The notes beneath the pieces are model-generated. The model ran no database searches, was not told where the DNA came from, and saw only the letters and a list, made by a program, of their open reading frames with translations. Below, piece after piece: positions 345 to 9,998 of a stretch of 64,000 nt of DNA. Both the position numbers and the translations under genes were made by a program. Location: contig JAUQQO010000018.1 of assembly GCA_030549795.1 (NCBI GenBank), forward strand, positions 88,277-152,276, read 5' to 3'. Numbering within the stretch: position 1 is the first letter of the stretch; each line of letters opens with the position of its first letter. This stretch comes from Pseudomonadota bacterium (GTDB taxonomy: Bacteria > Pseudomonadota > Alphaproteobacteria > Geminicoccales > Geminicoccaceae).

Positions 345-1364
345 TTAGGGCGTGACCTCGCGCATCAGTGCGCGCACCGCCGCGACGATCCCATCGGCGG
401 TGAGGCCGTAGCGCGCCTGCAGCGTCGGCACCGTTCCGCATTCGATAAAGCGCATGGGAATGCCGACCCGCCGCAACGGACGATGGATTCCGGCCGCGAA
501 GAGGGCCTCGACCACCTTGCTGCCGAGCCCACCCTCGATGAGGTGATTCTCGGCGGTGATCAGCACCTGAACGCGACGCGCGAAGTCCGTCACCGTTGCG
601 GCGTCGAATGGGACGAGACAGGGGACGTGCAGCACGCCCACAGAAAGCCCCTGACGCGCGAGCTCTTCGGCGGCATCGAGGGCGCGCTCGGTCATAAGGC
701 CGGTTGCGATGATGCCGATCTCGCCCGGCTCGCGCAGGATCTGGGCGCGGCCAAAAGCGAAGCGGTAACCGTACCGGTCCAGGACGATCGGCACCTTGCC
801 GCGCAGAATGCGCATGTACAGCGGCCGCGGCTCGGCTACGAAGGCCTCCACCACCTGTGCGATCTCGCAGGCATCGCAGGGATCGACGACGGTAAGACCG
901 GGGATGGCGCTCATAAGTGCCAGATCTTCGATGCCCTGATGGGTTGCGCCATAGCCCGTGGTGAGGCCCGGAAGCGCCGCGGCGATAGCAACGGGAAGCG
1001 CGCTCTTGGCGATCTGGATGGCGATGAAGTCGTAAGCGCGGCGGGTGGCGAAGACGGCATAAGTGGTCGCAAAGGGCAGAAAGCCGGTTTTGGCGAGCCC
1101 CGCCGCGGCGCCGATGAGCGCCTGTTCGGCCATGCCGACGTTGAAGAAGCGATCGGGAAAGGCTTCGGCGAACGGTAAAAGGTCGGTGTACTTGGCGAGA
1201 TCGGCTGTGAGCCCGACAAGCCGCGCCTCGCGCGCCGCTGCCGCGACCAGCGCCTTGCCGAAAGGCGCGCTCACGAACGGTCGGCCTTCGACCTCCTCGC
1301 TTTCGCCCATGCCCTTTGTGAAGGCCGGCTGTAGGTGTCCGGCGCGCGGTTGAACCTCGCTCAT
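345..1364 (-). CDS. Transketolase C-terminal subunit (pyrimidine-binding and C-terminal domains)
   Basis: This 339-residue protein matches the second half of transketolase: a pyrimidine-binding domain with the catalytic glutamate in FFNVGMAEQ (E80), then GATHQGIEDLALM and the transketolase C-terminal domain. Transketolase moves two-carbon ketol units between sugar phosphates using thiamine diphosphate. Here the enzyme is split; the TPP-binding half is at 4947-5831 on the same strand. A clear AGGAGG site lies just before the ATG. It is the last gene of the probable operon, 72 bases after the cytochrome c gene, with the amine dehydrogenase genes between the two halves. Split transketolases are known in archaea and many bacteria, but their substrates are often undefined, so the acceptor here is not known. 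Confidence 0.88.
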   Translation of the reverse strand: MSEVQPRAGHLQPAFTKGMGESEEVEGRPFVSAPFGKALVAAAAREARLVGLTADLAKYTDLLPFAEAFPDRFFNVGMAEQALIGAAAGLAKTGFLPFATTYAVFATRRAYDFIAIQIAKSALPVAIAAALPGLTTGYGATHQGIEDLALMSAIPGLTVVDPCDACEIAQVVEAFVAEPRPLYMRILRGKVPIVLDRYGYRFAFGRAQILREPGEIGIIATGLMTERALDAAEELARQGLSVGVLHVPCLVPFDAATVTDFARRVQVLITAENHLIEGGLGSKVVEALFAAGIHRPLRRVGIPMRFIECGTVPTLQARYGLTADGIVAAVRALMREVTP

Positions 1365-1436
1365 CGGCGCCTCCTGCGATCGGCTTCCCTTTTAGCAGGA
1401 TCCGGGCGTTCCACCCAGGCGCCGAGCCGGCGCGCT

Positions 1437-1943
1437 TTAGCTGCGCGGTTCGGGGCTCTTGCCGATGCCGTCGTCGTCAGGTGCGAGCAGCCCGCGCGCC
1501 CGCAGCTCGGCGAGCATGCGCTCGCGCAGGCCCTTGCGGTCCTCGAGCGGGCGGCGGCGCGCAGCCGCCACCTCCTCGACCGTGAAGGGGGCGAAGTCCG
1601 GTGCCCGCTGCTCGCGGCCGTAGGTCTCGAGCACCCAATTCAGAACCGCCGTCAGCCGCGCGTCGTCGAGCACGCTGCGCGCCACCCCCGGCACCCTCAT
1701 CAAGTAATCGCGTCCCTCCGGCAAATGGGTAAAGAGACCGACGAAGCCGTCGAGGCGGGGGACGTGCCCGGGAGTCCCTTCGCCGGCGAGCCCGTGGCAG
1801 CCCTTGCACTTCAAGGCGTAATCGAGCCTTGCCCCGGTGTGGACCTCGACCGGTCGTCCGGGCGCGTAGTCCACCGCCCGCGCCGGACCGAGGCTCACGA
1901 GGAACAGGGCCAGGGTCGCGACGAGCGCGCGCACCGCGATCAC
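1437..1943 (-). CDS. Periplasmic monohaem c-type cytochrome of the amine dehydrogenase cluster
   Basis: The chosen GTG start at 1943 overlaps the stop of the small-subunit gene (GTGA), giving 168 residues. A hydrophobic signal peptide (about residues 4-23) ends near ARA, followed by a single haem site CKGCH (46-50); a methionine in YLMRVPG is a possible axial ligand. In known TTQ amine dehydrogenases electrons leave to a blue copper protein (amicyanin or azurin) or to a cytochrome c. This gene sits where amicyanin (mauC) stands in methylamine clusters. The aromatic amine dehydrogenase cluster, as I recall it, carries a small monohaem cytochrome at the same place. The inferred role is electron acceptor of the dehydrogenase. 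The reading frame extends upstream to 2222, but that part is antisense-like and has no signal peptide. Confidence 0.8.
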   Translation of the reverse strand: MIAVRALVATLALFLVSLGPARAVDYAPGRPVEVHTGARLDYALKCKGCHGLAGEGTPGHVPRLDGFVGLFTHLPEGRDYLMRVPGVARSVLDDARLTAVLNWVLETYGREQRAPDFAPFTVEEVAAARRRPLEDRKGLRERMLAELRARGLLAPDDDGIGKSPEPRS

Positions 1944-2470
1944 GCCTTGCCGATCAGAACCTGGCTCGAGCAGTGGTAGACCATCGAGGGGGCGCCGAAG
2001 CACCACACGATGTCGTTGTTGAGCTCGGGCCGATAAGAAGGCATCTCGCCCTCGGTTCCGAGGCAGAAGCACATGCCGCAGCTGTCCTTGCCGCAGCAGT
2101 CCTGATAGGCGATGAGATACGCCTGCCCGTCGTCGGGATTGATACAGGTGCCGATCCAGCTCGTCGGCGAAGCGTAGGTGCCGGGTGGGCAGACGTTGAC
2201 GGTACCGCCGCAGCAGGAGCACAAGTAACCATCAGAGGCGCAGTGGCGCCAATAGTTGCACTTCGTGGGATCGGTAGTCTGAGCGGTCTTGGCGAATTCG
2301 CTCGCGTGCGCGAGTTTGGCACGCGTCTTGTCGACGGGGAGAAGCGGCAGGACCGCGCCACCCACGAGCGCGGTCCCCAAGCGCGCCAGGATCCCGCGCC
2401 GCGAACTGCGCTGCGCGATGCGGCGGGCGGTGTGTTCCATCATGCGGTCGAAAGCGTCGAGGATGGTCAC
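1940..2470 (-). CDS. mauA: TTQ (quinohaemoprotein-type) amine dehydrogenase, small catalytic subunit
   Basis: This 176-residue protein is the catalytic beta subunit that carries tryptophan tryptophylquinone. The two tryptophans expected to be cross-linked are W105 (in SPTSWIGTC) and W156 (in NDIVWCFGA); acidic residues sit at D80 (ASDG) and D124 (YQDCCG). Fourteen cysteines fit the heavily disulfide-bonded periplasmic fold. The N-terminus has a twin-arginine-like stretch, SSRRGILARLG. The middle resembles aromatic amine dehydrogenase (LCSCCGGT, CCGKDSCG), the end resembles methylamine dehydrogenase (TEGEMPSYRPE), so the substrate class is unresolved and the symbol names the family only. The GTG start overlaps the mauD stop. 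The subunit acts in the periplasm with the large subunit. Confidence 0.92.
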   Translation of the reverse strand: MTILDAFDRMMEHTARRIAQRSSRRGILARLGTALVGGAVLPLLPVDKTRAKLAHASEFAKTAQTTDPTKCNYWRHCASDGYLCSCCGGTVNVCPPGTYASPTSWIGTCINPDDGQAYLIAYQDCCGKDSCGMCFCLGTEGEMPSYRPELNNDIVWCFGAPSMVYHCSSQVLIGKA

Positions 2471-3120
2471 GGGTTCGTTCCTCCTTGAGCGGCAGGGGAA
2501 GTCGCAGCACCGTTGGGTCGCACGGCGCGTCGGGTCCCCGCGAGATAGTCCTGAATGGAGCTGAAGCCGGTCTCCTGCGCGACGAGCAGGCTCTCGAGAT
2601 GCTCGCGCGAGTTCACGATCCCCTTCGCGCGCACCACACCCTCTGCATCGATCAGCACTGCGTAGGGCAATTTGCCGATCCCAAAGCGCATGCCGACGAT
2701 GGGGGAAATAGCGAAGGGAAGATCTTCAACGCCATGTTCGCGCGCCATGGCACGATGCGCTTCGCGCTCGCCGTCACCCATGAGCACGAGCTCGACCGAT
2801 TTGCGCTCGCTTCTCGCGAACGACCGTACCGCACCCATGAGCTTTTTGCACATTGGGCAAATCGGCGAGACGAAGAGCAACAGCTGGCTTTTGCCATCCG
2901 CGCGCACGCCGCCCACGTGTAGCTTGCGCCCCTCGAGGTCGAGCAGGTCGAACTCGGGCGCCTTCTCGCCGATTTCCACGGCTGTGGGGGTGGCCATTGC
3001 GCCGAGCGGTGCTACCCGTTCGTGCAGCACCCCGACTTGTCGGGCGAGGGCGAGCACCGTCAGGCTCAAGACCGCAACCACGATCCACAAGAGAATATCG
3101 GAGACGACGAGCGGGTCCAA
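2467..3120 (-). CDS. mauD: MauD-like thioredoxin-fold protein for amine dehydrogenase maturation
   Basis: This 217-residue protein has one N-terminal membrane segment (about 8-27) followed by a thioredoxin-like domain with the redox motif CPMC (88-91) and a cis-proline segment (KLPYAVLID). MauD family proteins are required for folding and disulfide formation of the cysteine-rich small subunit in the periplasm. The TTG start at 3120 is supported by a GGGAGGT site just upstream. Its stop overlaps the start of the small-subunit gene by four bases, which suggests translational coupling of the helper with its client. Confidence 0.9.
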   Translation of the reverse strand: MDPLVVSDILLWIVVAVLSLTVLALARQVGVLHERVAPLGAMATPTAVEIGEKAPEFDLLDLEGRKLHVGGVRADGKSQLLLFVSPICPMCKKLMGAVRSFARSERKSVELVLMGDGEREAHRAMAREHGVEDLPFAISPIVGMRFGIGKLPYAVLIDAEGVVRAKGIVNSREHLESLLVAQETGFSSIQDYLAGTRRAVRPNGAATSPAAQGGTNP

Positions 3121-3125
3121 AGTCC

Positions 3126-3683
3126 CTACCTCCCGGACTTGAGGCGCCCGAGCGGAGCCAAGCCGGCAAGCCGGCTGAACGCCGCATAGAGTGCGAGAAG
3201 GGCTAATGAGCCGAAGACGATCGGAACGAGCTCCAAAAGGTGCGGAACATCGCTGGCCGGGCGCGTAACGAGAAGGGCCGCCAGAGCGGCGAGCAAAAGG
3301 TTACGGACCACGAGCGACCAGCTGATCCGCTCCTTCTGTCGACCGATAAAACAACCGCAGTCGATTTCGGTGCGGCCGCGCAGGATGTTGATCGTCATGG
3401 CGAGCGCGAAGAGGAGGAGAAGGGCGAGCGCGAGCACCGCACCATAAGGGCGGGAGGGTGGGAGGAGCACCGCCACTCCGGCTGCGATCTCCCCCCAGGG
3501 AAGAGTGCGCGCAAAGGGCTCCGTCCAGCGCTCGGGCAGGATCCGATAGTCCGCAACGATGCCGATGACTTCGTCCATCGCGCGCAGTTTGCTCACCGCG
3601 CTCGGCAGGAAGATCCCTGCGAGGACGAGCGCTCCCACCCAATGGAAAGCAGGTGCTTGCAGCGCGTCCACGCGTCCCCTCAC
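3126..3683 (-). CDS. mauE: MauE-like membrane protein for amine dehydrogenase maturation
   Basis: This 185-residue protein has about four to five membrane segments in the DoxX-like MauE pattern: a first helix with FLPSAVSKL, then two long leucine-rich segments, and the conserved cysteine pair in EIDCGCFIG. MauE is thought to work with MauD in transport or disulfide processing of the small subunit. The GTG start overlaps the stop of the large-subunit gene (GTGA), and mauD begins five bases after its stop. The B-E-D-A order of the cluster matches both mau and aau operons. Confidence 0.88.
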   Translation of the reverse strand: MRGRVDALQAPAFHWVGALVLAGIFLPSAVSKLRAMDEVIGIVADYRILPERWTEPFARTLPWGEIAAGVAVLLPPSRPYGAVLALALLLLFALAMTINILRGRTEIDCGCFIGRQKERISWSLVVRNLLLAALAALLVTRPASDVPHLLELVPIVFGSLALLALYAAFSRLAGLAPLGRLKSGR

Positions 3684-4873
3684 TCACCGAAGGTGTAAAG
3701 GAGCCAGGGCGAGATGCCGAGAGCGCTGCGCTCGGCCTTCTTCTGCCAGGTGGTGGTATCGTACGACATCAAGATCGCGGTCTCGGTGAGCGCGAACAGC
3801 AACGGTTTCTCGTCCTGGCTTACGGCGATGGTCGGGCTGTGATGGTCGAGCGGCAGACGATGGACGCGTTTTTTCGCGGCGACATCGAACACCCAAACCT
3901 CATCGCCAGCTTGCTTATGAGTCCACTTGCCGCCCTTGTGCATGGTCACGAACAGGCGGTTGGAGGCGGCATGGAACGCGGCGAGCTGCCAGCCGCCGGG
4001 CCGCCATTCTTCATCCCCGGGGCCCTGCAGTTTCCAGCGCTCGCCCACTTTCGGCATGCCGTCGAGCGTTACCGGATAGACCCAGCCATCATAAGAGATG
4101 AAGAACGCCCGCTTGGACGGCCGGTGCACAGCGGCATGCTCGAAGACCGGATCGTTCTGCGAATCGAACCAGGGCTCGGAGAGCTCGGTCTTGGTGAGTT
4201 TGCCGGAAGCGTCGAAGGTCAGATGCACGAAGCGTCCGTCGGGGCAGATCGACGCGACGCTGTTGGTGCCGGTTGCAAAGGCGAGCGAACAACCCTGCGT
4301 ATCGAGCTCGCCCAGATATTTCATCTCGTTCACATCGACCACGCTCAAGGAGAAGGCGGGGTCCATGTTGAACGAGAACAGATAGCGACCATCGTGGGAG
4401 AGCGTAGCATTGTGTTTTTTCGGCACGACCAAGAAGCGGCCGTTGGGCAGGATCACCTCGCCTAACGGATCAAGGGTCTTGGTGTCCCATGCGGTGACGA
4501 CGTCGGTGCGCGTGCCGCGCGAGCCCCGTGACCAATAAGTCTCGGCGATCCAAAACCGGCTCTTGTCGTGGCTGAGTACCGCATTGGGCAGATAGCCACC
4601 ATTGACCATGCCCTTGATCGAGAGATCGTCGCCGTCGAGGATCCACATTTTGGAGGCGACGAGGTAGGGGAACACGGGTTCGAGGACGTAGATCCAGCGC
4701 GGGCTGGGTTCGGGCAACACGGCAGTCGGATGGTCTTCTTGGGTCGGCAGCGCCGCCTGCGGCGGCATCTGAGCCGGGATCGGAGTCGCCGGTTGTGCCC
4801 ACGCCTCAACGAGAGCCCCGCTCAACCAAGCCCCGATCGACAACAGGGCGAAACGCATCGCGTACACTCGCAT
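3680..4873 (-). CDS. mauB: TTQ amine dehydrogenase, large subunit (seven-bladed propeller)
   Basis: The protein is 397 residues from the ATG at 4873, which has a strong GAGGGGGG site; an in-frame ATG at 4888 is possible but lacks one. A signal peptide (about 1-26, ending VEAWA) is followed by a beta-propeller with repeated blades. Family signatures include HDGRYLFSFNMDP, WRPGGWQLAAFH, THKQAGDEVWVFD and AVSQDEKPLLFAL. This subunit pairs with the TTQ small subunit in the periplasm to oxidise primary amines to aldehyde and ammonia. It lies 73 bases after the transketolase N-half gene and heads the B-E-D-A block. Confidence 0.92.
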   Translation of the reverse strand: MRVYAMRFALLSIGAWLSGALVEAWAQPATPIPAQMPPQAALPTQEDHPTAVLPEPSPRWIYVLEPVFPYLVASKMWILDGDDLSIKGMVNGGYLPNAVLSHDKSRFWIAETYWSRGSRGTRTDVVTAWDTKTLDPLGEVILPNGRFLVVPKKHNATLSHDGRYLFSFNMDPAFSLSVVDVNEMKYLGELDTQGCSLAFATGTNSVASICPDGRFVHLTFDASGKLTKTELSEPWFDSQNDPVFEHAAVHRPSKRAFFISYDGWVYPVTLDGMPKVGERWKLQGPGDEEWRPGGWQLAAFHAASNRLFVTMHKGGKWTHKQAGDEVWVFDVAAKKRVHRLPLDHHSPTIAVSQDEKPLLFALTETAILMSYDTTTWQKKAERSALGISPWLLYTFGE

Positions 4874-4946
4874 AGGCCCCCCTCGCATTGTCGGCCCGCG
4901 CCCTCACTATTAAGCATGACGCGTGCCAGTTGGTATTATCCGGCTG

Positions 4947-5831
4947 CTACGACCCGTCGAACGCCTCCGGATAGCTTGTTCCGCGCACGGACTGAGCGTA
5001 AGTTGCCTCGAGTTCGTCCAAAATGACCGCCCACTCGTCCGGCTCGACGCGGATGAAATGCGCCTTCTCCCGGCGCTCGAGGCGCGGCACGCCCTTGCCC
5101 GGCAGAGTTCGACAGATGATCGCCTTGGGGCGGCCGTCGCGGGCGCGGGCGCGCGTAAGCGCCGAAACGATCGCCGCCATGTCGTTGCCGTCGATCTCTT
5201 GCGTGTCGAAGCCGAAGGCGCGCCACTTCTCGGCCAAGGGTTCGAGGGTGACGACGATCGTCCCGTCCGCTTGGATCCCGTTAGCATCGACGATCGCCAC
5301 CAGCTGATCGAGGCCGAAGGTGACGGCGGCGAGTGCCGCCTCCCAGGTCGAGCCCTCCTGGCACTCGCCATCGGAGAGCTCGCAAAAGACGCGCGCCTCC
5401 GATCCGGCAAGGCGCAGACCCAAGGCCATGCCGATGGCAACCGGCAGGCCGTGGCCCAACGAGCCACCCGTCACTTCCACCCCGGGCGAGCTGTCGAGCG
5501 CGCTCATATCGAGCCGGCTGTCATCGGTCGCAAAGGTCGACAGCTCCTCGCGCGCGAGCGCCCCCGCTTCGGCGAGCGTCGCCCACAAGAGCATCGCGTA
5601 ATGGCCGGTGGAAAGGACGAAACGGTCGCGCTCCGGCCAATTGAGATCGCGCGGATCCCAGCGCAGCTCGTGGAAAAAGAGCGCCGCCATGACATCGGCG
5701 AAGCCGAGGGCTTGCCCGAGATAGCCCTGGCCCTTGCCGGTGGCGAGGAGGATGCAGCTGCGTCGGATCGCATGCGCAGACGCGCGCAACCGCTCGAGAT
5801 CAGCGGATGGCGGCGGATGGTTGCGCAGCAT
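4947..5831 (-). CDS. Transketolase N-terminal subunit (TPP-binding half)
   Basis: The ATG at 5831 is preceded by GGGAGGTGG, giving 294 residues; the open frame upstream of it has no such site. Features are STGHYAMLLWA (histidine 77), GSLGHGLP (124-130) and the TPP/magnesium motif beginning near residue 153 and ending at N184 (VDANG); the usual GDG is SDG here. It forms the first half of transketolase and must pair with the C-half encoded at 345-1364. In most bacteria with split transketolase the two genes are adjacent; here five amine dehydrogenase genes separate them on the same strand. The inferred role is to process the aldehyde product or another sugar acceptor in the cytosol. Confidence 0.88.
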   Translation of the reverse strand: MLRNHPPPSADLERLRASAHAIRRSCILLATGKGQGYLGQALGFADVMAALFFHELRWDPRDLNWPERDRFVLSTGHYAMLLWATLAEAGALAREELSTFATDDSRLDMSALDSSPGVEVTGGSLGHGLPVAIGMALGLRLAGSEARVFCELSDGECQEGSTWEAALAAVTFGLDQLVAIVDANGIQADGTIVVTLEPLAEKWRAFGFDTQEIDGNDMAAIVSALTRARARDGRPKAIICRTLPGKGVPRLERREKAHFIRVEPDEWAVILDELEATYAQSVRGTSYPEAFDGS

Positions 5832-5975: not shown

Positions 5976-6779
5976 TCAGCGGTCCAGCCATTGCATGCGG
6001 ATCTTCTCGCCAATCAGACAATCGATCCGCTTTTCCGGCGCACGGGCTGCCGCCGGGATCACCTCCGCGGTGCGGCCTGCCACTTCGAGCCACAGCTTCT
6101 GGCGGATGGCGGGGACGAACTGTTCTTTCTCCCGCACTGGAATGACGAAAGAACCGGGCCCGCCCGTCACGCAGTCTTCGTAGTAGATGTCGAGATCGGG
6201 GATGCTGCCGAAGCCGGGATGGGGGTCTTTGAGCATGATCGGCAGGCCGTTGATCACGATGCCGCGCGCGAGCACGGCATCGCGCACCGGCTCGATCATC
6301 GGCCCGGCGTTGTTGGGTCCATCGCCGGAGACGTCGATCACCCGCCGAAGGCCTTGGTAGGGACTCTTATCGAAGAGGTCCGCTGCGAACAAAAGCGCCG
6401 CTGAGATCGACGTCCAGCGTTCGCGGCTGAGCGGAGCTTCGGCGAGTTCGGCTGCGAAGGCCTGCGCGCTTTGCGGCCCATCGATGAGCCGCCAGGGCAC
6501 CACCACCTGCTGCCAGGAGGGTCCCGACCATTCGACGTAGGTGACCGCGATGCGCCCAAAACCACCGGCGCGGATCGCGTGGATCACTTCCGGTGCGGTG
6601 ATCGCTTCGAGATAGCCCCGGCGCTGCAGTTCCTGCTCGTCGAGATCCATCGAGCGCGACACATCGACGGCGAGCACGAGCTCGAGGTCGACCGGTATGG
6701 CCTGCGCCCGAGCCGTCCCGCAGCCGCCTATGAGGACCGCGATCGCGACCAACCACCCGACTACCGCCGCGCTCGGCAT
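5976..6779 (-). CDS. Secreted VWA-domain protein (DUF1194)
   Basis: The chosen ATG at 6779 gives 267 residues with a signal peptide (VVGWLVAIAVLIGGCG, ending near ARAQA); the site before it is weak, and in-frame starts upstream would bury the signal. The domain is a von Willebrand factor A fold with the metal motif DVSRSMD and, later, DVSGDGPNNAG. DUF1194 proteins are common in alphaproteobacteria and have no firm function. It is the first gene of the minus-strand run that includes the split transketolase and the TTQ dehydrogenase, 144 bases before the next gene. VWA proteins assist maturation of periplasmic quinoprotein dehydrogenases in other operons, so a similar role is possible but unproven. 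Confidence 0.8.
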   Translation of the reverse strand: MPSAAVVGWLVAIAVLIGGCGTARAQAIPVDLELVLAVDVSRSMDLDEQELQRRGYLEAITAPEVIHAIRAGGFGRIAVTYVEWSGPSWQQVVVPWRLIDGPQSAQAFAAELAEAPLSRERWTSISAALLFAADLFDKSPYQGLRRVIDVSGDGPNNAGPMIEPVRDAVLARGIVINGLPIMLKDPHPGFGSIPDLDIYYEDCVTGGPGSFVIPVREKEQFVPAIRQKLWLEVAGRTAEVIPAAARAPEKRIDCLIGEKIRMQWLDR

Positions 6780-6970
6780 GGCGCGTCGTTCCAAAAAGAC
6801 CTTCTTGCCCACACTGCGATGGCGCGCTCGTGCCGTCAACGGCGGCGGCATCGGCCCGGCCCGATCTTGAGGCGCAACGCGCTCGCGCTGCCCACACATG
6901 ACACCACCGCGCGACGTCCTTAGCCTGCAGCAGGCGTGCACGGCTGCCCGTCGCTTCGGAGATCGCGCTT
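6780..6970. promoter_or_regulatory. Divergent intergenic region between the amine operon and formate-THF ligase
   Basis: These 191 bases separate the minus-strand operon (first gene starting at 6779) from fhs (starting at 6971) and must hold the promoters in both directions. I see no clear sigma-70 boxes. A CTGCAGCAGG segment near 6925 is partly palindromic. Shared control of both units is an inference from the divergent layout. Confidence 0.35.
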
Positions 6971-8692
6971 ATGGCGCTCGGCTTTTCGTTCGAGGGGCCC
7001 ATCCCCCAGGCATCGCCGCGGCCGATCGCGGAGGTCGCTGAGGAGCTCGGCGTTCCCGCTTCTGCGCTCCTTCCTTACGGTCGCGATGTCGCCAAGGTCG
7101 ACCTCGCGTGGTTGCGCGAACAGGGAGCACAGCTGCGCGGGCGACTCGTGCTCGTGACCGCGATCACGCCCACGCCCGCTGGCGAGGGCAAGACGACGAC
7201 CGCGATCGGGCTCACGGATGCGCTGCGCCGGCTCGGTCGGCGCGCTGTGGTCTGTTTGCGCGAGCCTTCCTTGGGTCCCACGCTCGGCGCCAAGGGGGGT
7301 GCCACCGGTGCCGGGCGGGCGCGCCTGGTGCCGAGCGCGCGCATCGATCTGCACTTCACCGGCGACTTCAACGCCATCGCGAGCGCTCACAACCTGCTCG
7401 CAGCGTTGATCGACAACCATCTGCACTGGGGCAACGAGCTCGCCCTCGATCCCCGCCAGGTGAGCTGGCGGCGGGTGATCGACCTCGATGATCGCGCCTT
7501 GCGGTCGATCATCGTCGGTCTCGGCGGGACGGCGAACGGCGTGCCGCGCGAAACCGGCTTCGACATCACCGCCGCTTCCGAGGTCATGGCGATCTTTTGC
7601 CTGGCGCGAGATCTCGCCGATCTCGAAGCCCGGCTCGAGCGGATCGTGATCGGCGCGGATCGCCACGGCAGGCCCGTACGCGCTGCGGCGCTCGGCGCAC
7701 CGGCGCCTATGACCGCGCTTTTAGCGGAGGCCTTCGCCCCCAACCTCGTCCAGACGCTCGAGGGTTCGCCGGCGTTCGTCCACGGCGGGCCGTTCGCCAA
7801 CATCGCCCACGGCTGCAACAGCGCGATCGCCACCCGCAGCGCGCTCGCGCTCGCCGAGATCGTGGTCACCGAGGCTGGTTTTGGGGCCGATCTTGGAGCC
7901 GAGAAATTCGTGAACATCAAGGCGCGGGAAAGCGGCCTCTTTCCCGATCTCGCGGTGCTCGTGGTGAGCGTGCGGGCTTTACGCTACCACGGCGGCGCGA
8001 CGCGCGACGCTCTCGAGCGGCCAGATCCCGAGGCGGTGGCGCGCGGGCTCGCCAATCTCGAACGCCACCTCGCCATCCTTTCCCGCTTGCGCGTGCCGAC
8101 GGTGGTGGCGATCAACCGATTCCCCCATGACAGCGACGCCGAACATGCGCTCGTGCGGGAACGCTGCGCGCGCCTGAGCGTGCCGAGCGCCCTTTGTACG
8201 CACCATGACGAGGGCGGAGCTGGGGCGCTCGAGCTCGCTGAACGAGTGCTCGCCGCGCTGTTCGGCGATCGTGCCGATGCGGCCGGCGGGGCGGATGGGT
8301 CGTCCGCGTGCGAGGACCGAACGCGTCTTCTCTATCCCGACGACATGCCCTTGCGCGAGAAGATCGCCTTGGTCGCCCGTGAGATCTACGGAGCCGCCGA
8401 TGTCTTGTTCGAGAAAGCCGCTGCGCAGTCCTTGGATCGCTTCGAAGCCTGGGGTTTCGGTCGGCTTTCGGTGTGTATGGCCAAAACCCCTTTGAGCCTT
8501 TCGGCTGATGCGAGCCTGCGCGGAGCGCCACGGGATTTCACCTTTCCCGTCCGCGCGGTTCGTCTTGCCGCCGGGGCGGGCTTCGTCGTGGTCCTCGCGG
8601 GCGAAGTGACCACCATGCCGGGTCTGCCGCGGCGACCGGCGGCACTCGATCTGCGCCTCGATGCGCGCGGGCAAATCCAGGGATTGCGCTGA
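6971..8692 (+). CDS. fhs: Formate-tetrahydrofolate ligase
   Basis: This 573-residue protein is close to the usual length of about 560. It shows the P-loop TPAGEGKTT (68-76), followed by EPSLGPTLGAKGGATGAGRA-like family sequence, the GDFNAIASAHNLL segment and GFGADLGAEKF. The enzyme joins formate to tetrahydrofolate with ATP, giving 10-formyl-THF in the cytosol. It is divergent from the amine dehydrogenase/transketolase operon, and folE, needed to make folate, lies next to it on the opposite strand. That context fits assimilation of C1 units, for example formate from oxidised methylamine carbon. A GGAG site precedes the ATG. Confidence 0.95.
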   Translation: MALGFSFEGPIPQASPRPIAEVAEELGVPASALLPYGRDVAKVDLAWLREQGAQLRGRLVLVTAITPTPAGEGKTTTAIGLTDALRRLGRRAVVCLREPSLGPTLGAKGGATGAGRARLVPSARIDLHFTGDFNAIASAHNLLAALIDNHLHWGNELALDPRQVSWRRVIDLDDRALRSIIVGLGGTANGVPRETGFDITAASEVMAIFCLARDLADLEARLERIVIGADRHGRPVRAAALGAPAPMTALLAEAFAPNLVQTLEGSPAFVHGGPFANIAHGCNSAIATRSALALAEIVVTEAGFGADLGAEKFVNIKARESGLFPDLAVLVVSVRALRYHGGATRDALERPDPEAVARGLANLERHLAILSRLRVPTVVAINRFPHDSDAEHALVRERCARLSVPSALCTHHDEGGAGALELAERVLAALFGDRADAAGGADGSSACEDRTRLLYPDDMPLREKIALVAREIYGAADVLFEKAAAQSLDRFEAWGFGRLSVCMAKTPLSLSADASLRGAPRDFTFPVRAVRLAAGAGFVVVLAGEVTTMPGLPRRPAALDLRLDARGQIQGLR

Positions 8693-8804
8693 AGATTGCG
8701 CGATCCGAGCCGCACCTGCGCACGGCCGAGCGGGGTCGAAGTCGACCAACGCCCGGCTCATCTCCGCGCTCCTCGGGTTCGGCCTTAGGGGTCGCAAATC
8801 CGCA

Positions 8805-8899
8805 TAACCGATGGCCTACGCGCCGCGCGGCGCGCGGCCGGGCTCGATTGGTGTCGGATTCGGGTCCTCTGATCTGAGGGTGCCCTGCGCCATCGGTTA
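8805..8899. repeat. Perfect 11-base inverted repeat with a 73-base centre
   Basis: TAACCGATGGC at 8805-8815 is exactly complementary to GCCATCGGTTA at 8889-8899, whose last bases include the folE stop codon. The centre contains GC-rich self-complementary sequence (around 8820-8840) and a small hairpin, CCTC/GAGG, at 8867-8880. It lies between the convergent fhs and folE genes and may act as a two-way transcription stop or RNA structure. There is no T-tract. Confidence 0.4.
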
Positions 8900-9550
8900 G
8901 CGCTGCAACTCCAAAGGCGTCTTGCCGATGATCGCGAGGAACTCGCGGCGGGTTTCCGGATTGGTGCGGAATTCGCCCAACAGTCGGCTCGTGACCATGA
9001 CCGAGCCCGGCTTGTAGACACCCCGGGTCGTCATGCAGTGATGGGTGGCTTCGATCACCACCCCGACTCCGCGTGGCTGTAAGATTTCTTGGATGGTGTC
9101 GGCGATCTGTGCCGTCATCCGCTCTTGGATCTGCAGGCGCTTGGCGAAGGCATCGACGAGGCGGGCGAGTTTGGAGATCCCCACCACCCGGCGTACCGGC
9201 AGATAGGCCACATGCGCACGGCCGATGATGGGCGCCATGTGGTGTTCGCAGTGGCTCTCAAAGGCAATGTCTTTGAGAACCACCATCTCATCGTAACCCT
9301 CGACCTCTTCGAAGGTCTTTCGCAAGATTTCAGCGGGATCGACGAAGTAGCCTCTAAAGTGTTCGCGGAAGGCTTCGACCACGCGATGCGGGGTGTCCTT
9401 AAGCCCTTCGCGCTCGGGATCTTCTCCAATCCAACGCAGGAGTGTGCGGACCGCTTCTTCCGCCTCTGCGCGCGAAGGTCGATGAGCTGCAACAGAGCGC
9501 TCGGCGAGTGAGCCACGAGCGCGGTCGCGCACTGCAGGGGCCACGGTCAC
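8897..9550 (-). CDS. folE: GTP cyclohydrolase I
   Basis: The GTG at 9550 is preceded by ACGGAGGGACAAC and gives 217 residues, the normal size; a GTG at 9586 is possible but has no good site. Key features are the zinc site ([20 protein letters not shown] and THHCM), GLKDTPHRV, and the substrate segments [15 protein letters not shown] and QERMTAQI. The enzyme converts GTP to dihydroneopterin triphosphate, the first step of tetrahydrofolate synthesis, in the cytosol. It converges on fhs, whose product consumes tetrahydrofolate. Confidence 0.95.
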
Positions 9551-9998
9551 GTTGTCCCTCCGTTGGTCCGGGTTCTGAGCTCCCACTGCCCCTTATACTC
9601 CCTCTTCGAGCCGCTGGTTCAGCGATCTCGCGAATCTTTTGTACTCGGTAGGCTGCCGCCGCCGCGAGGAGGCAATCGCCCCAGGCGATCGCAGGGCTTT
9701 AAGCTCAGGCTTCGCGCGCATGCCCTTTGCACCACGAGTGCCCGTGCACCCACCGAGCCACAGCAAGACGGTGTGAGCAGCTGCACCGGCATTGGTGGTT
9801 TGTTAACTGAAACGCGCATAGCTTGGCGCCGTGTTGTGCGTCACGGGGCTTCCCTTTCGCGGCCGATGGTGGCCAGCGGTTGTCGGGCGCTTGCGGGTGC
9901 CGACCGCCCGCCGGCTATGCCAGAGCATCGATCGCCCCAAAAGGGCCGGGCGCGAGGAGGGGTATGTCGGCGCTGGCTGTGGAGCGGTGGAGGAGGTC
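9551..9998. other. Gap between folE and the TPR-SPOR gene
   Basis: No convincing gene is seen in these 448 bases. The region should hold promoters for the divergent folE and TPR-SPOR genes. The reading frame of the latter stays open through much of the gap but its codons before 9999 look random. There is no T-tract hairpin. Confidence 0.4.

What the first reader, a model, noticed from the sequence alone, without database searches (positions are those of the whole stretch)
345..5831. TTQ amine dehydrogenase cluster nested inside a split transketolase
On one strand the order is transketolase N-half, amine dehydrogenase large subunit, MauE, MauD, small subunit, cytochrome c, transketolase C-half, with gaps of at most about 73 bases and several four-base overlaps. 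Seen directly: order, strand, motifs. Known: TTQ dehydrogenases oxidise primary amines to aldehyde and ammonia; transketolase can accept aldehydes, and a transketolase relative (dihydroxyacetone synthase) uses formaldehyde. Inference: the split enzyme may capture the aldehyde product, forming an unrecognised amine-to-sugar route.
Basis: partly seen in the sequence, partly recalled or inferred. Interest (0 to 1): 0.75.

Follow-up and report, generated by a model that had tools for sequence, protein, structure and literature searches.

The report
Amine dehydrogenase inside split transketolase operon
In all six genomes examined from one genus of uncultured Geminicoccaceae bacteria, the five genes of an amine-oxidising enzyme module sit between the two genes of a two-part transketolase-like enzyme, so the second enzyme would likely use the aldehyde made by the first, a link that is predicted and untested.

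Summary
On the minus strand of 345-5831 the order is TkN, mauB, mauE, mauD, mauA, cytochrome c, TkC, with gaps of at most 72 bases and three four-base overlaps. It is not peculiar to this genome: the same order is in 6 of 6 genomes of the genus. Outside the genus I saw no second case: TkN and TkC are adjacent in 35 of 35 loci read, and none of 34 other amine dehydrogenase loci has the pair. Related transketolases sit in SDR-TkN-TkC operons, so the mauBEDA-cytochrome module was most simply inserted between the subunit genes. Two of six genomes lack SDR and TRAP at the locus and a third carries broken copies, yet all seven nested genes are open in all six. The transketolase belongs to a subfamily lacking most phosphate-binding residues and two active-site histidines of ordinary transketolase; three of four positions whose mutation improves E. 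coli transketolase on aromatic aldehydes are changed. An aldehyde link is chemically plausible but unproven: the oxidase looks periplasmic, the transketolase cytoplasmic, and one genome has an opposite-strand gene before TkC. A formaldehyde-to-dihydroxyacetone route is unlikely.

The parts
4947..5831 (-). TkN: N-terminal (ThDP-diphosphate-binding) subunit of a two-subunit transketolase, GQGY type
   Evidence: Transketolase_N 2.1e-41; best solved relative is the N chain of the C. hydrogenoformans split transketolase 6yak, 1.3e-61; 82-86% identical in the five congeners
3680..4888 (-). mauB-like TTQ amine dehydrogenase large subunit
   Evidence: Me-amine-dh_H 7.9e-55, but below the NCBIfam methylamine dehydrogenase cut-off (195.9 against 454.45 bits); PDB best MADH 166 bits, AADH 139 bits
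3126..3683 (-). mauE, membrane accessory protein
   Evidence: MauE 4.6e-31
2467..3120 (-). mauD, thioredoxin-like accessory protein
   Evidence: TIGR02661 204 bits, above cut-off 188.6
1940..2470 (-). mauA-like TTQ small subunit with 14 Cys, twin-arginine leader, both TTQ tryptophans and the catalytic Asp
   Evidence: TIGR02659 219.6 bits, above cut-off 196.85; alignment with 3c75_L; Cys count. Which Trp and Asp are the TTQ/catalytic ones is recalled
1437..1943 (-). secreted one-haem cytochrome c, likely electron acceptor
   Evidence: Cytochrom_C 1.2e-4; one CxxCH and hydrophobic leader; GTG start overlapping the mauA stop
345..1364 (-). TkC: pyrimidine-binding plus C-terminal subunit of the split transketolase
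   Evidence: Transket_pyr 4.6e-32 and Transketolase_C 2.4e-25; best solved relative 6yaj, 4.4e-64
5976..6797 (-). DUF1194 gene upstream on the same strand, 144 bases before TkN (neighbour; in four congeners SDR and TRAP genes lie between)
   Evidence: DUF1194 4e-78

Best explanation
In this genus a five-gene TTQ amine dehydrogenase module (mauB, E, D, A and a cytochrome c) sits between the two subunit genes of a two-part transketolase, most likely because it was inserted into an older SDR-TkN-TkC operon, and the two enzymes likely act in sequence. Shown: gene content, order, conservation in 6 of 6 genomes, open reading frames of all seven genes, low dN/dS of TkN and TkC, and absence or decay of the SDR/TRAP genes in three of the six. 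Inferred: the dehydrogenase is exported, gets its tryptophan tryptophylquinone there, oxidises a primary amine to aldehyde plus ammonia and passes electrons to the cytochrome c. Inferred: the aldehyde crosses into the cytoplasm, where TkN and TkC together, with ThDP, transfer a two-carbon (ketol or acyl) unit onto it, giving an unphosphorylated ketone or ketose. Amine, donor and product are not identified; the residue pattern favours an unphosphorylated, possibly aromatic or bulky aldehyde and leaves pyruvate possible as donor.
For: Same seven-gene order in 6 of 6 genomes of the genus. Matched stretches of all seven genes hold no stop in 6 of 6, while SDR, TRAP-P and TRAP-M are absent from the locus in G000 and G022 and broken in G024; genome-wide, the best TRAP-M relative left is 40% identical in G000 and 54-55% in G022, against 89-100% in the other four. 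In the pair lacking SDR/TRAP, dN/dS is 0.10 (TkN), 0.12 (TkC), 0.10 (MauB), 0.01 (MauA), against 0.04 (FdhD), 0.17 (MobA), 0.22 (DUF1194), so the transketolase is still selected without its old neighbours. The genome has an ordinary full-length transketolase elsewhere (L080). The nested transketolase lacks the histidine of the GHPG motif, the His at E. coli position 100, Arg358, His461 and Asp469, and has Tyr for Ser385; mutations at R358, S385, D469 and R520 improve E. coli transketolase on aromatic aldehydes, and the closest solved split transketolase takes glycolaldehyde and phenylacetaldehyde (PMC7661550, abstract, passages, section 12). TkC Lys58 aligns with the lysine (K33 of ChTK-C) that those authors docked against phenylacetaldehyde (my mapping). 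The small subunit has the extra cysteine pair of aromatic amine dehydrogenase.
Against: The residue pattern is shared by the GQGY-type subfamily, also in operons without amine dehydrogenase, so it is not an adaptation to this partner. Leader sequences put the dehydrogenase and cytochrome outside and the transketolase inside (by eye and hydropathy). In G022 an opposite-strand AP_endonuc_2 gene separates cyt from TkC. The flanking fdhD and mobA genes also keep their place in 6 of 6, so order alone is weak evidence over this divergence. Both modules exist unlinked elsewhere in the family: 14 mau loci without transketolase, 16 TkN-TkC loci without mau (15, L120). By overall score both dehydrogenase subunits are nearer methylamine than aromatic amine dehydrogenase.
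Confidence: 0.4

Rival explanations
1. Passenger in a shared transcription unit: the mauBEDA-cytochrome module landed between TkN and TkC and uses that operon's promoter, while the two enzymes serve unrelated substrates; order persists because it does no harm and rearrangement is rare.
For: Compartments differ; each module exists alone in relatives; neighbouring fdhD and mobA are equally conserved in place; in G022 TkC is 1,081 bases from cyt across an opposite-strand gene; single-gene trees put G021 with G024 for TkN and TkC (99, 100) but not for mauB and mauE between them.
Against: SDR and TRAP, the old partners, are gone or broken in three of six genomes while TkN, TkC and all mau genes stayed open, which leaves the mau genes as the only directly adjacent genes kept in all six.
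Confidence: 0.38
2. The transketolase keeps its ancestral job, splitting or building an unphosphorylated ketose from a polyol or sugar acid taken up elsewhere, and the amine dehydrogenase feeds the same cell with nitrogen and electrons in parallel; co-regulation reflects a common food source.
For: Relatives sit with SDR, TRAP and a mandelate-racemase-type enolase-superfamily gene (L118, L119), plasmid relatives with SDR and TRAP or with SDR and glycerol dehydrogenase; G022 has a xylose-isomerase-like barrel gene beside TkC.
Against: The SDR is gone from this genome's locus, the close TRAP-M relative from the whole genome, and both are broken in G024.
Confidence: 0.15
3. Formaldehyde assimilation: methylamine to formaldehyde, then a dihydroxyacetone-synthase-like reaction of the split transketolase.
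For: A second, canonical-looking amine dehydrogenase cluster exists in the genome (L004); formate-tetrahydrofolate ligase is a close neighbour.
Against: No Dak1 dihydroxyacetone kinase in 6 of 6 genomes; phosphate-binding residues that a xylulose-5-phosphate donor would need are changed (roles recalled); Fae, a different formaldehyde route, is in 3 of 6 including this one; the nested large subunit is far below the methylamine dehydrogenase cut-off.
Confidence: 0.05

Closest known systems
Methylamine dehydrogenase (mau) clusters and MADH of Paracoccus
   Same: BEDA order (cluster order of Paracoccus recalled); small subunit passes TIGR02659 and keeps both TTQ tryptophans
   Different: Large subunit far below TIGR02658 cut-off; no mauG and no match to the mauF-like gene of L004 in the nested cluster; two extra cysteines in the small subunit; transketolase genes on both sides
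Aromatic (aralkyl-) amine dehydrogenase (aau) of Alcaligenes faecalis
   Same: Extra cysteine pair of the small subunit; BEDA followed by a cytochrome c without mauG (aau cluster layout recalled)
   Different: Both subunits score lower against AADH than against MADH; transketolase genes on both sides
Split-gene transketolase of Carboxydothermus hydrogenoformans (6YAK/6YAJ; PMC7661550)
   Same: Two chains with the same domain split; best solved relatives of both subunits; lysine at the docked aldehyde site
   Different: That enzyme keeps the H100 histidine (passage) and, by the printed alignment, the arginine, serine, histidine and aspartate that are changed here
Rif15a/Rif15b two-subunit transketolase of rifamycin biosynthesis (PMC6002545)
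   Same: Two overlapping genes whose product transfers a C2 unit to an unusual acceptor
   Different: Acceptor is rifamycin S; donors tried were four sugar phosphates and dihydroxyacetone, xylulose-5-phosphate best (passages read); sequence relation to the nested pair not tested
SDR-TkN-TkC operons (unnamed L118, L119, L189, L190) and TRAP-linked plasmid forms (Sulfitobacter NZ_CP045378, Aminobacter NZ_CP015008)
   Same: Same transketolase subfamily and residue pattern (L189 and L190 not scored for it); the four loci carry an SDR 56-69% identical to that of congener G023 upstream of TkN
   Different: TkN and TkC adjacent; no amine dehydrogenase

Membership tests
TTQ amine dehydrogenase (MADH/AADH superfamily) | Large and small subunit homologues plus MauD and MauE together | tested here: met
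TTQ amine dehydrogenase (MADH/AADH superfamily) | Two TTQ tryptophans and catalytic Asp in the small subunit | tested here: met
   Conserved in 6 of 6 by alignment with 3c75_L; residue roles recalled
TTQ amine dehydrogenase (MADH/AADH superfamily) | TTQ actually formed, amine oxidised | not testable with these tools
   Needs protein
Methylamine dehydrogenase proper | Large subunit passes TIGR02658 | tested here: not met
   195.9 bits against cut-off 454.45; the large subunit of the genome's second cluster was not scored against this model
Methylamine dehydrogenase proper | mauG (and mauF) in the cluster | tested here: not met
   No match to L004 mauG or to its mauF-like gene in the nested loci. 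MauG relatives of 68-77% lie in the separate clusters of G020, G021, G022 and G024; G023 has only a 34% homologue. The mauF-like gene is named from its place; Pfam gave it no family
Aromatic amine dehydrogenase | Better match to AADH than to MADH | tested here: not met
   139 against 166 bits (large), 144 against 151 bits for mature small chains
Aromatic amine dehydrogenase | Extra cysteine pair in the small subunit | tested here: met
Split transketolase | Two chains: ThDP-diphosphate domain, and pyrimidine plus C-terminal domains, with ThDP and catalytic Glu residues kept | tested here: met
   (SDGE...N and MAEQ kept; roles partly from PMC7661550 section 12, partly recalled)
Ordinary pentose-phosphate transketolase | GHPG histidine, His100, Arg358, Ser385, His461, Asp469 (E. 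coli numbering) | tested here: not met
   GHPG, H100, S385 and H461-D469 sites changed in 6 of 6; Arg358 is Ser in this genome against 6yaj
Dihydroxyacetone synthase | Formaldehyde acceptor with a dihydroxyacetone kinase downstream | tested here: inconclusive
   No Dak1 in 6 of 6; activity not testable

The most novel reading that the evidence does not exclude
An unrecognised amine-to-ketose route: an exported TTQ amine dehydrogenase and a phosphate-independent split transketolase, encoded as one nested unit, turn primary amines (possibly aromatic) into two-carbon-extended hydroxyketones that the cell uses as carbon.
Probability: 0.22. Interest if true: 0.75.

Novelty: new variant of a known kind. 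Interest (0 to 1): 0.5.

Why it matters
If the two enzymes are coupled, amine carbon would be captured by carbon-carbon bond formation rather than oxidised through an acid or through C1 carriers, and nature would have a ready pair for making hydroxyketones from amines. Even without coupling, the locus ties a widespread subfamily of two-subunit transketolases (GQGY/ADLxKY type), for which the papers I found assign no function, to a chemistry that can be assayed, and gives a clear case of a whole enzyme module placed between two subunit genes of another enzyme and kept there in six genomes.

Tried and rejected
Mechanical causes: an assembly artefact is rejected, since the order recurs in 6 genomes, one of them titled complete. 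The locus is not at a contig end: it is C6:88621-94107 of a 152,276-base contig (the window's other end is the contig end).

Searches that gave little: the genome-contig scan with the genus TkN alignment used two very specific peptides and returned 8 loci, 5 of the genus. The promoter scan found 0 promoter-like sites and 6 terminator-like sites against a mean of 4.9 in shuffles, so it says nothing about operon limits. Ten literature searches (two searches listed only 12 of 170 and 8 of 747 papers) showed no description of this arrangement in the titles and abstract openings listed. Three papers were opened: PMC6002545 (passages), PMC9594981 (passages), PMC7661550 (abstract, passages, section 12).

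Considered and dropped: a link to sulfoquinovose transketolase SqwGH (passages; no sequence compared). Co-occurrence as evidence for coupling: outside the genus the order sample has 25 genomes, 10 with the dehydrogenase; GQGY-type TkN is seen in G010, G014, G017, G018, G026, G030 and, by other sites only, G016; 4 of these 7 also have the dehydrogenase, at none of the read loci together; too weak to use. Structure prediction and fold search were not run, because sequence matches to solved split transketolase and MADH were already strong.

Limits of counts: protein clusters 63-76% identical to TkN, nearer than the 59-63% relatives whose surroundings I read, are listed (for example from Kaistia and Mesorhizobium); I could not see their neighbours, nor those of 27 clusters at 81% or more, so a nested order elsewhere is not excluded. 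Weak hits G187 and G649 were not fetched. Several family loci lie on short contigs (3-7 kb), so a transketolase further off could be missed. Three of the 35 adjacent loci (L097, L123, L127) hold a second, distant TkN/TkC pair (27-36% identical) with 330-420 bases between partial matches; only the best pair was counted. In one search a pattern gave no answer at some sites, mostly in the other, histidine-type split transketolases. dN/dS is pairwise Nei-Gojobori on tblastn-matched stretches, not a codon model. SDR loss was judged at the locus only; TRAP-M loss genome-wide.
Full report
What is there. The minus strand of window 345-5831 reads TkN (5831-4947), mauB (4888-3680), mauE (3683-3126), mauD (3120-2467), mauA (2470-1940), cytochrome c (1943-1437), TkC (1364-345). 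Pfam or NCBIfam supports each name. Upstream on the same strand is a DUF1194 gene; beyond TkC, on the other strand, lie MobA-like and FdhD genes; formate-tetrahydrofolate ligase and GTP cyclohydrolase I are neighbours on the other side.

Where it is. The window is C6:88277-152276 of a 3.16 Mb genome. That these come from hot springs is recalled or guessed from isolate names, not shown.

How widespread the order is. All six genomes of the genus have the seven genes in the same order and strand. Outside the genus I read 34 other amine dehydrogenase loci: 14 loci in 10 genomes of the same family; 8 loci in 8 genomes of the class sample (13 of 385 genomes matched; the other five are G000, G010, G022, G023 and the weak hit G187); and 12 loci in 10 genomes of the phylum sample (13 of 398 matched; the other three are G000 and the weak hits G187 and G649). 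None has TkN, and one (L179) has a TkC-like match, 33% identical and about 7.6 kb away. The five separate mau clusters of the genus itself have no transketolase match either. Conversely, TkN and TkC homologues were read at 35 loci outside the genus (L096-L098, L118-L132, L160-L174, L189, L190): the best TkN and TkC matches are at most 137 bases apart in 35 of 35, and none of these stretches has a MauA or MauB match. Protein clusters 63-76% identical to TkN exist whose neighbours I could not see, so a second nested case is not excluded.

Origin. The nearest transketolases outside the genus whose surroundings I read (59-63% identity: L096, L118, L119, L189, L190) have TkN next to TkC; in four of these five (not L096) an SDR gene, 56-69% identical to the SDR of congener G023, is directly upstream of TkN on the same strand. 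In L118 and L119 a mandelate-racemase-type gene follows TkC and a TRAP transporter is nearby. In four congeners (G020, G021, G023, G024) the same SDR, broken in G024, precedes TkN and a divergent TRAP transporter lies beyond it. So the simplest history is an SDR-TkN-TkC operon into which mauBEDA-cyt was inserted between TkN and TkC. The nearest relative of the inserted module seen here is an unlinked mauBEDA-cyt cluster of another genus of the family (G025, L061: MauB 57%, MauA 74%).

What selection kept. SDR and TRAP are absent from the locus in G000 and G022, and no TRAP-M above 40% (G000) or 55% (G022) remains in their genomes, against 89-100% in the other four. In G024 the SDR lacks about 57 residues and changes frame, TRAP-P changes frame and has a stop, TRAP-M has one stop and the neighbouring radical SAM gene two, TRAP-Q none; the matched stretches of the seven nested genes have no stop in any of the six genomes. 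G000 and G022 are split from the rest in 8 of 10 single-gene trees, not in those of MobA and TkC, so this is probably two separate losses. Between G000 and G022 dN/dS is 0.10 for TkN, 0.12 for TkC, 0.10 MauB, 0.20 MauE, 0.03 MauD, 0.01 MauA, 0.10 cyt; neighbours: FdhD 0.04, MobA 0.17, DUF1194 0.22, ligase 0.22. The transketolase is thus still under constraint without its old partners.

The amine dehydrogenase. The small subunit passes the methylamine dehydrogenase small-subunit model, the large subunit does not pass the large-subunit one. Both are nearer MADH than AADH in PDB scores, but the small subunit has the additional cysteine pair that AADH has and MADH lacks. The nested cluster has no match to the mauG or mauF-like gene of the genome's second cluster; G023 has no close MauG anywhere (best 34%), so maturation there must do without the canonical one, as recalled for aau clusters. 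I therefore call it a TTQ amine dehydrogenase of unassigned substrate. Leaders of MauB, MauA (twin arginine) and cytochrome c indicate export; TkN and TkC show none (by eye and hydropathy).

The transketolase. Aligned with the genome's own full-length transketolase (L080) and with the solved C. hydrogenoformans split enzyme, TkN and TkC keep the ThDP/metal Asp and Asn, the catalytic Glu (MAEQ), the GHY histidine (E. coli H66), the late TkN His (EKAH), H473 (GATHQ) and the arginine at R520; they replace or lose the GHPG histidine (Tyr), H100 (Ser/Met region), R358 (Ser in this genome), S385 (Tyr), H461 (Leu) and D469 (deleted). The numbers H66, H100, H473, R358, S385, D469 and R520 are E. coli numbers used in PMC7661550; which residue of L080 each one is, the other numbers, and the assignment to phosphate binding are recalled. 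The same pattern is in the three 59-63% relatives scored (L096, L118, L119) and in the other GQGY-type loci, whereas other split transketolases of the same family of bacteria (L169-L171, L173) keep GHIG or GHVG and NGHP. PMC7661550 reports that mutations at R358, S385, D469 and R520 improve E. coli transketolase on aromatic aldehydes and that replacing H100 by Phe or Leu in another transketolase raises use of pyruvate; its split enzyme accepts glycolaldehyde, phenylacetaldehyde and cyclohexanecarboxaldehyde with hydroxypyruvate and does not accept pyruvate as donor. Its docked lysine K33 of ChTK-C corresponds, by the offset given by its Leu31C and Glu55C, to Lys58 of the nested TkC (mapping mine). 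So an unphosphorylated acceptor is the better bet, and hydrophobic aldehydes are plausible.

Reading. An amine-derived aldehyde as acceptor fits the chemistry and the retention pattern, but nothing here shows it. Against it stand the two compartments, the fact that the residue pattern is older than the insertion, the conserved place of unrelated flanking genes, and G022's opposite-strand gene between cyt and TkC. I put sequential action at 0.4 and a passenger in a shared transcription unit at 0.38. The formaldehyde-to-dihydroxyacetone version is unlikely (no Dak1 in 6 of 6; Fae in 3 of 6).

Novelty. Each enzyme kind is known; the nesting and its retention were not found described in the searches listed under Tried and rejected. 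New variant of a known kind.

Noticed in passing
L004:6140-13676 (genome C46): A second, canonical-looking amine dehydrogenase cluster: a mauF-like gene (named from its place, no Pfam match), mauB, E, D, A, an unknown gene, mauG and a cytochrome b561/multihaem gene; present in 5 of 6 congeners (G000, G020, G021, G022, G024), while G023 has only the nested small subunit.
   Followed up: partly
L040, L042, L044, L045 (genomes G006, G010, G016, G009): mauB and mauA directly adjacent with no room for mauE and mauD between, in genomes that also hold another small-subunit locus (BEDA-type in three; a short contig with mauA and cytochrome only in G016); possibly paralogues matured by the other cluster's proteins.
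   Followed up: no
L059:10768-11625: Only in G022: a xylose-isomerase-like (AP_endonuc_2) gene on the opposite strand between cytochrome c and TkC.
   Followed up: partly
six nested loci (L003, L057-L060, L062): TkN and TkC trees group G021 with G024 (99, 100; fdhD 76), while mauB and mauE lying between them group G024 with G020 and G023 (100, 94): a mosaic history of outer and inner genes, unexplained.
   Followed up: partly
L058:1158-2258; L060:17642-19406: Beside the divergent TRAP genes: a radical SAM/SPASM protein (L057, L058, L062) or, in G020, an acetamidase/formamidase and another SDR.
   Followed up: no
window 6971-9586: Formate-tetrahydrofolate ligase (+) and GTP cyclohydrolase I (-) next to the locus; the ligase hints at C1 metabolism.
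   Followed up: no
L175-L186: mauB, D, A and a cytochrome c in the same order in 12 of 12 phylum-sample loci (MauE matched in 11), so the five inserted genes are a common ready-made module.
   Followed up: partly
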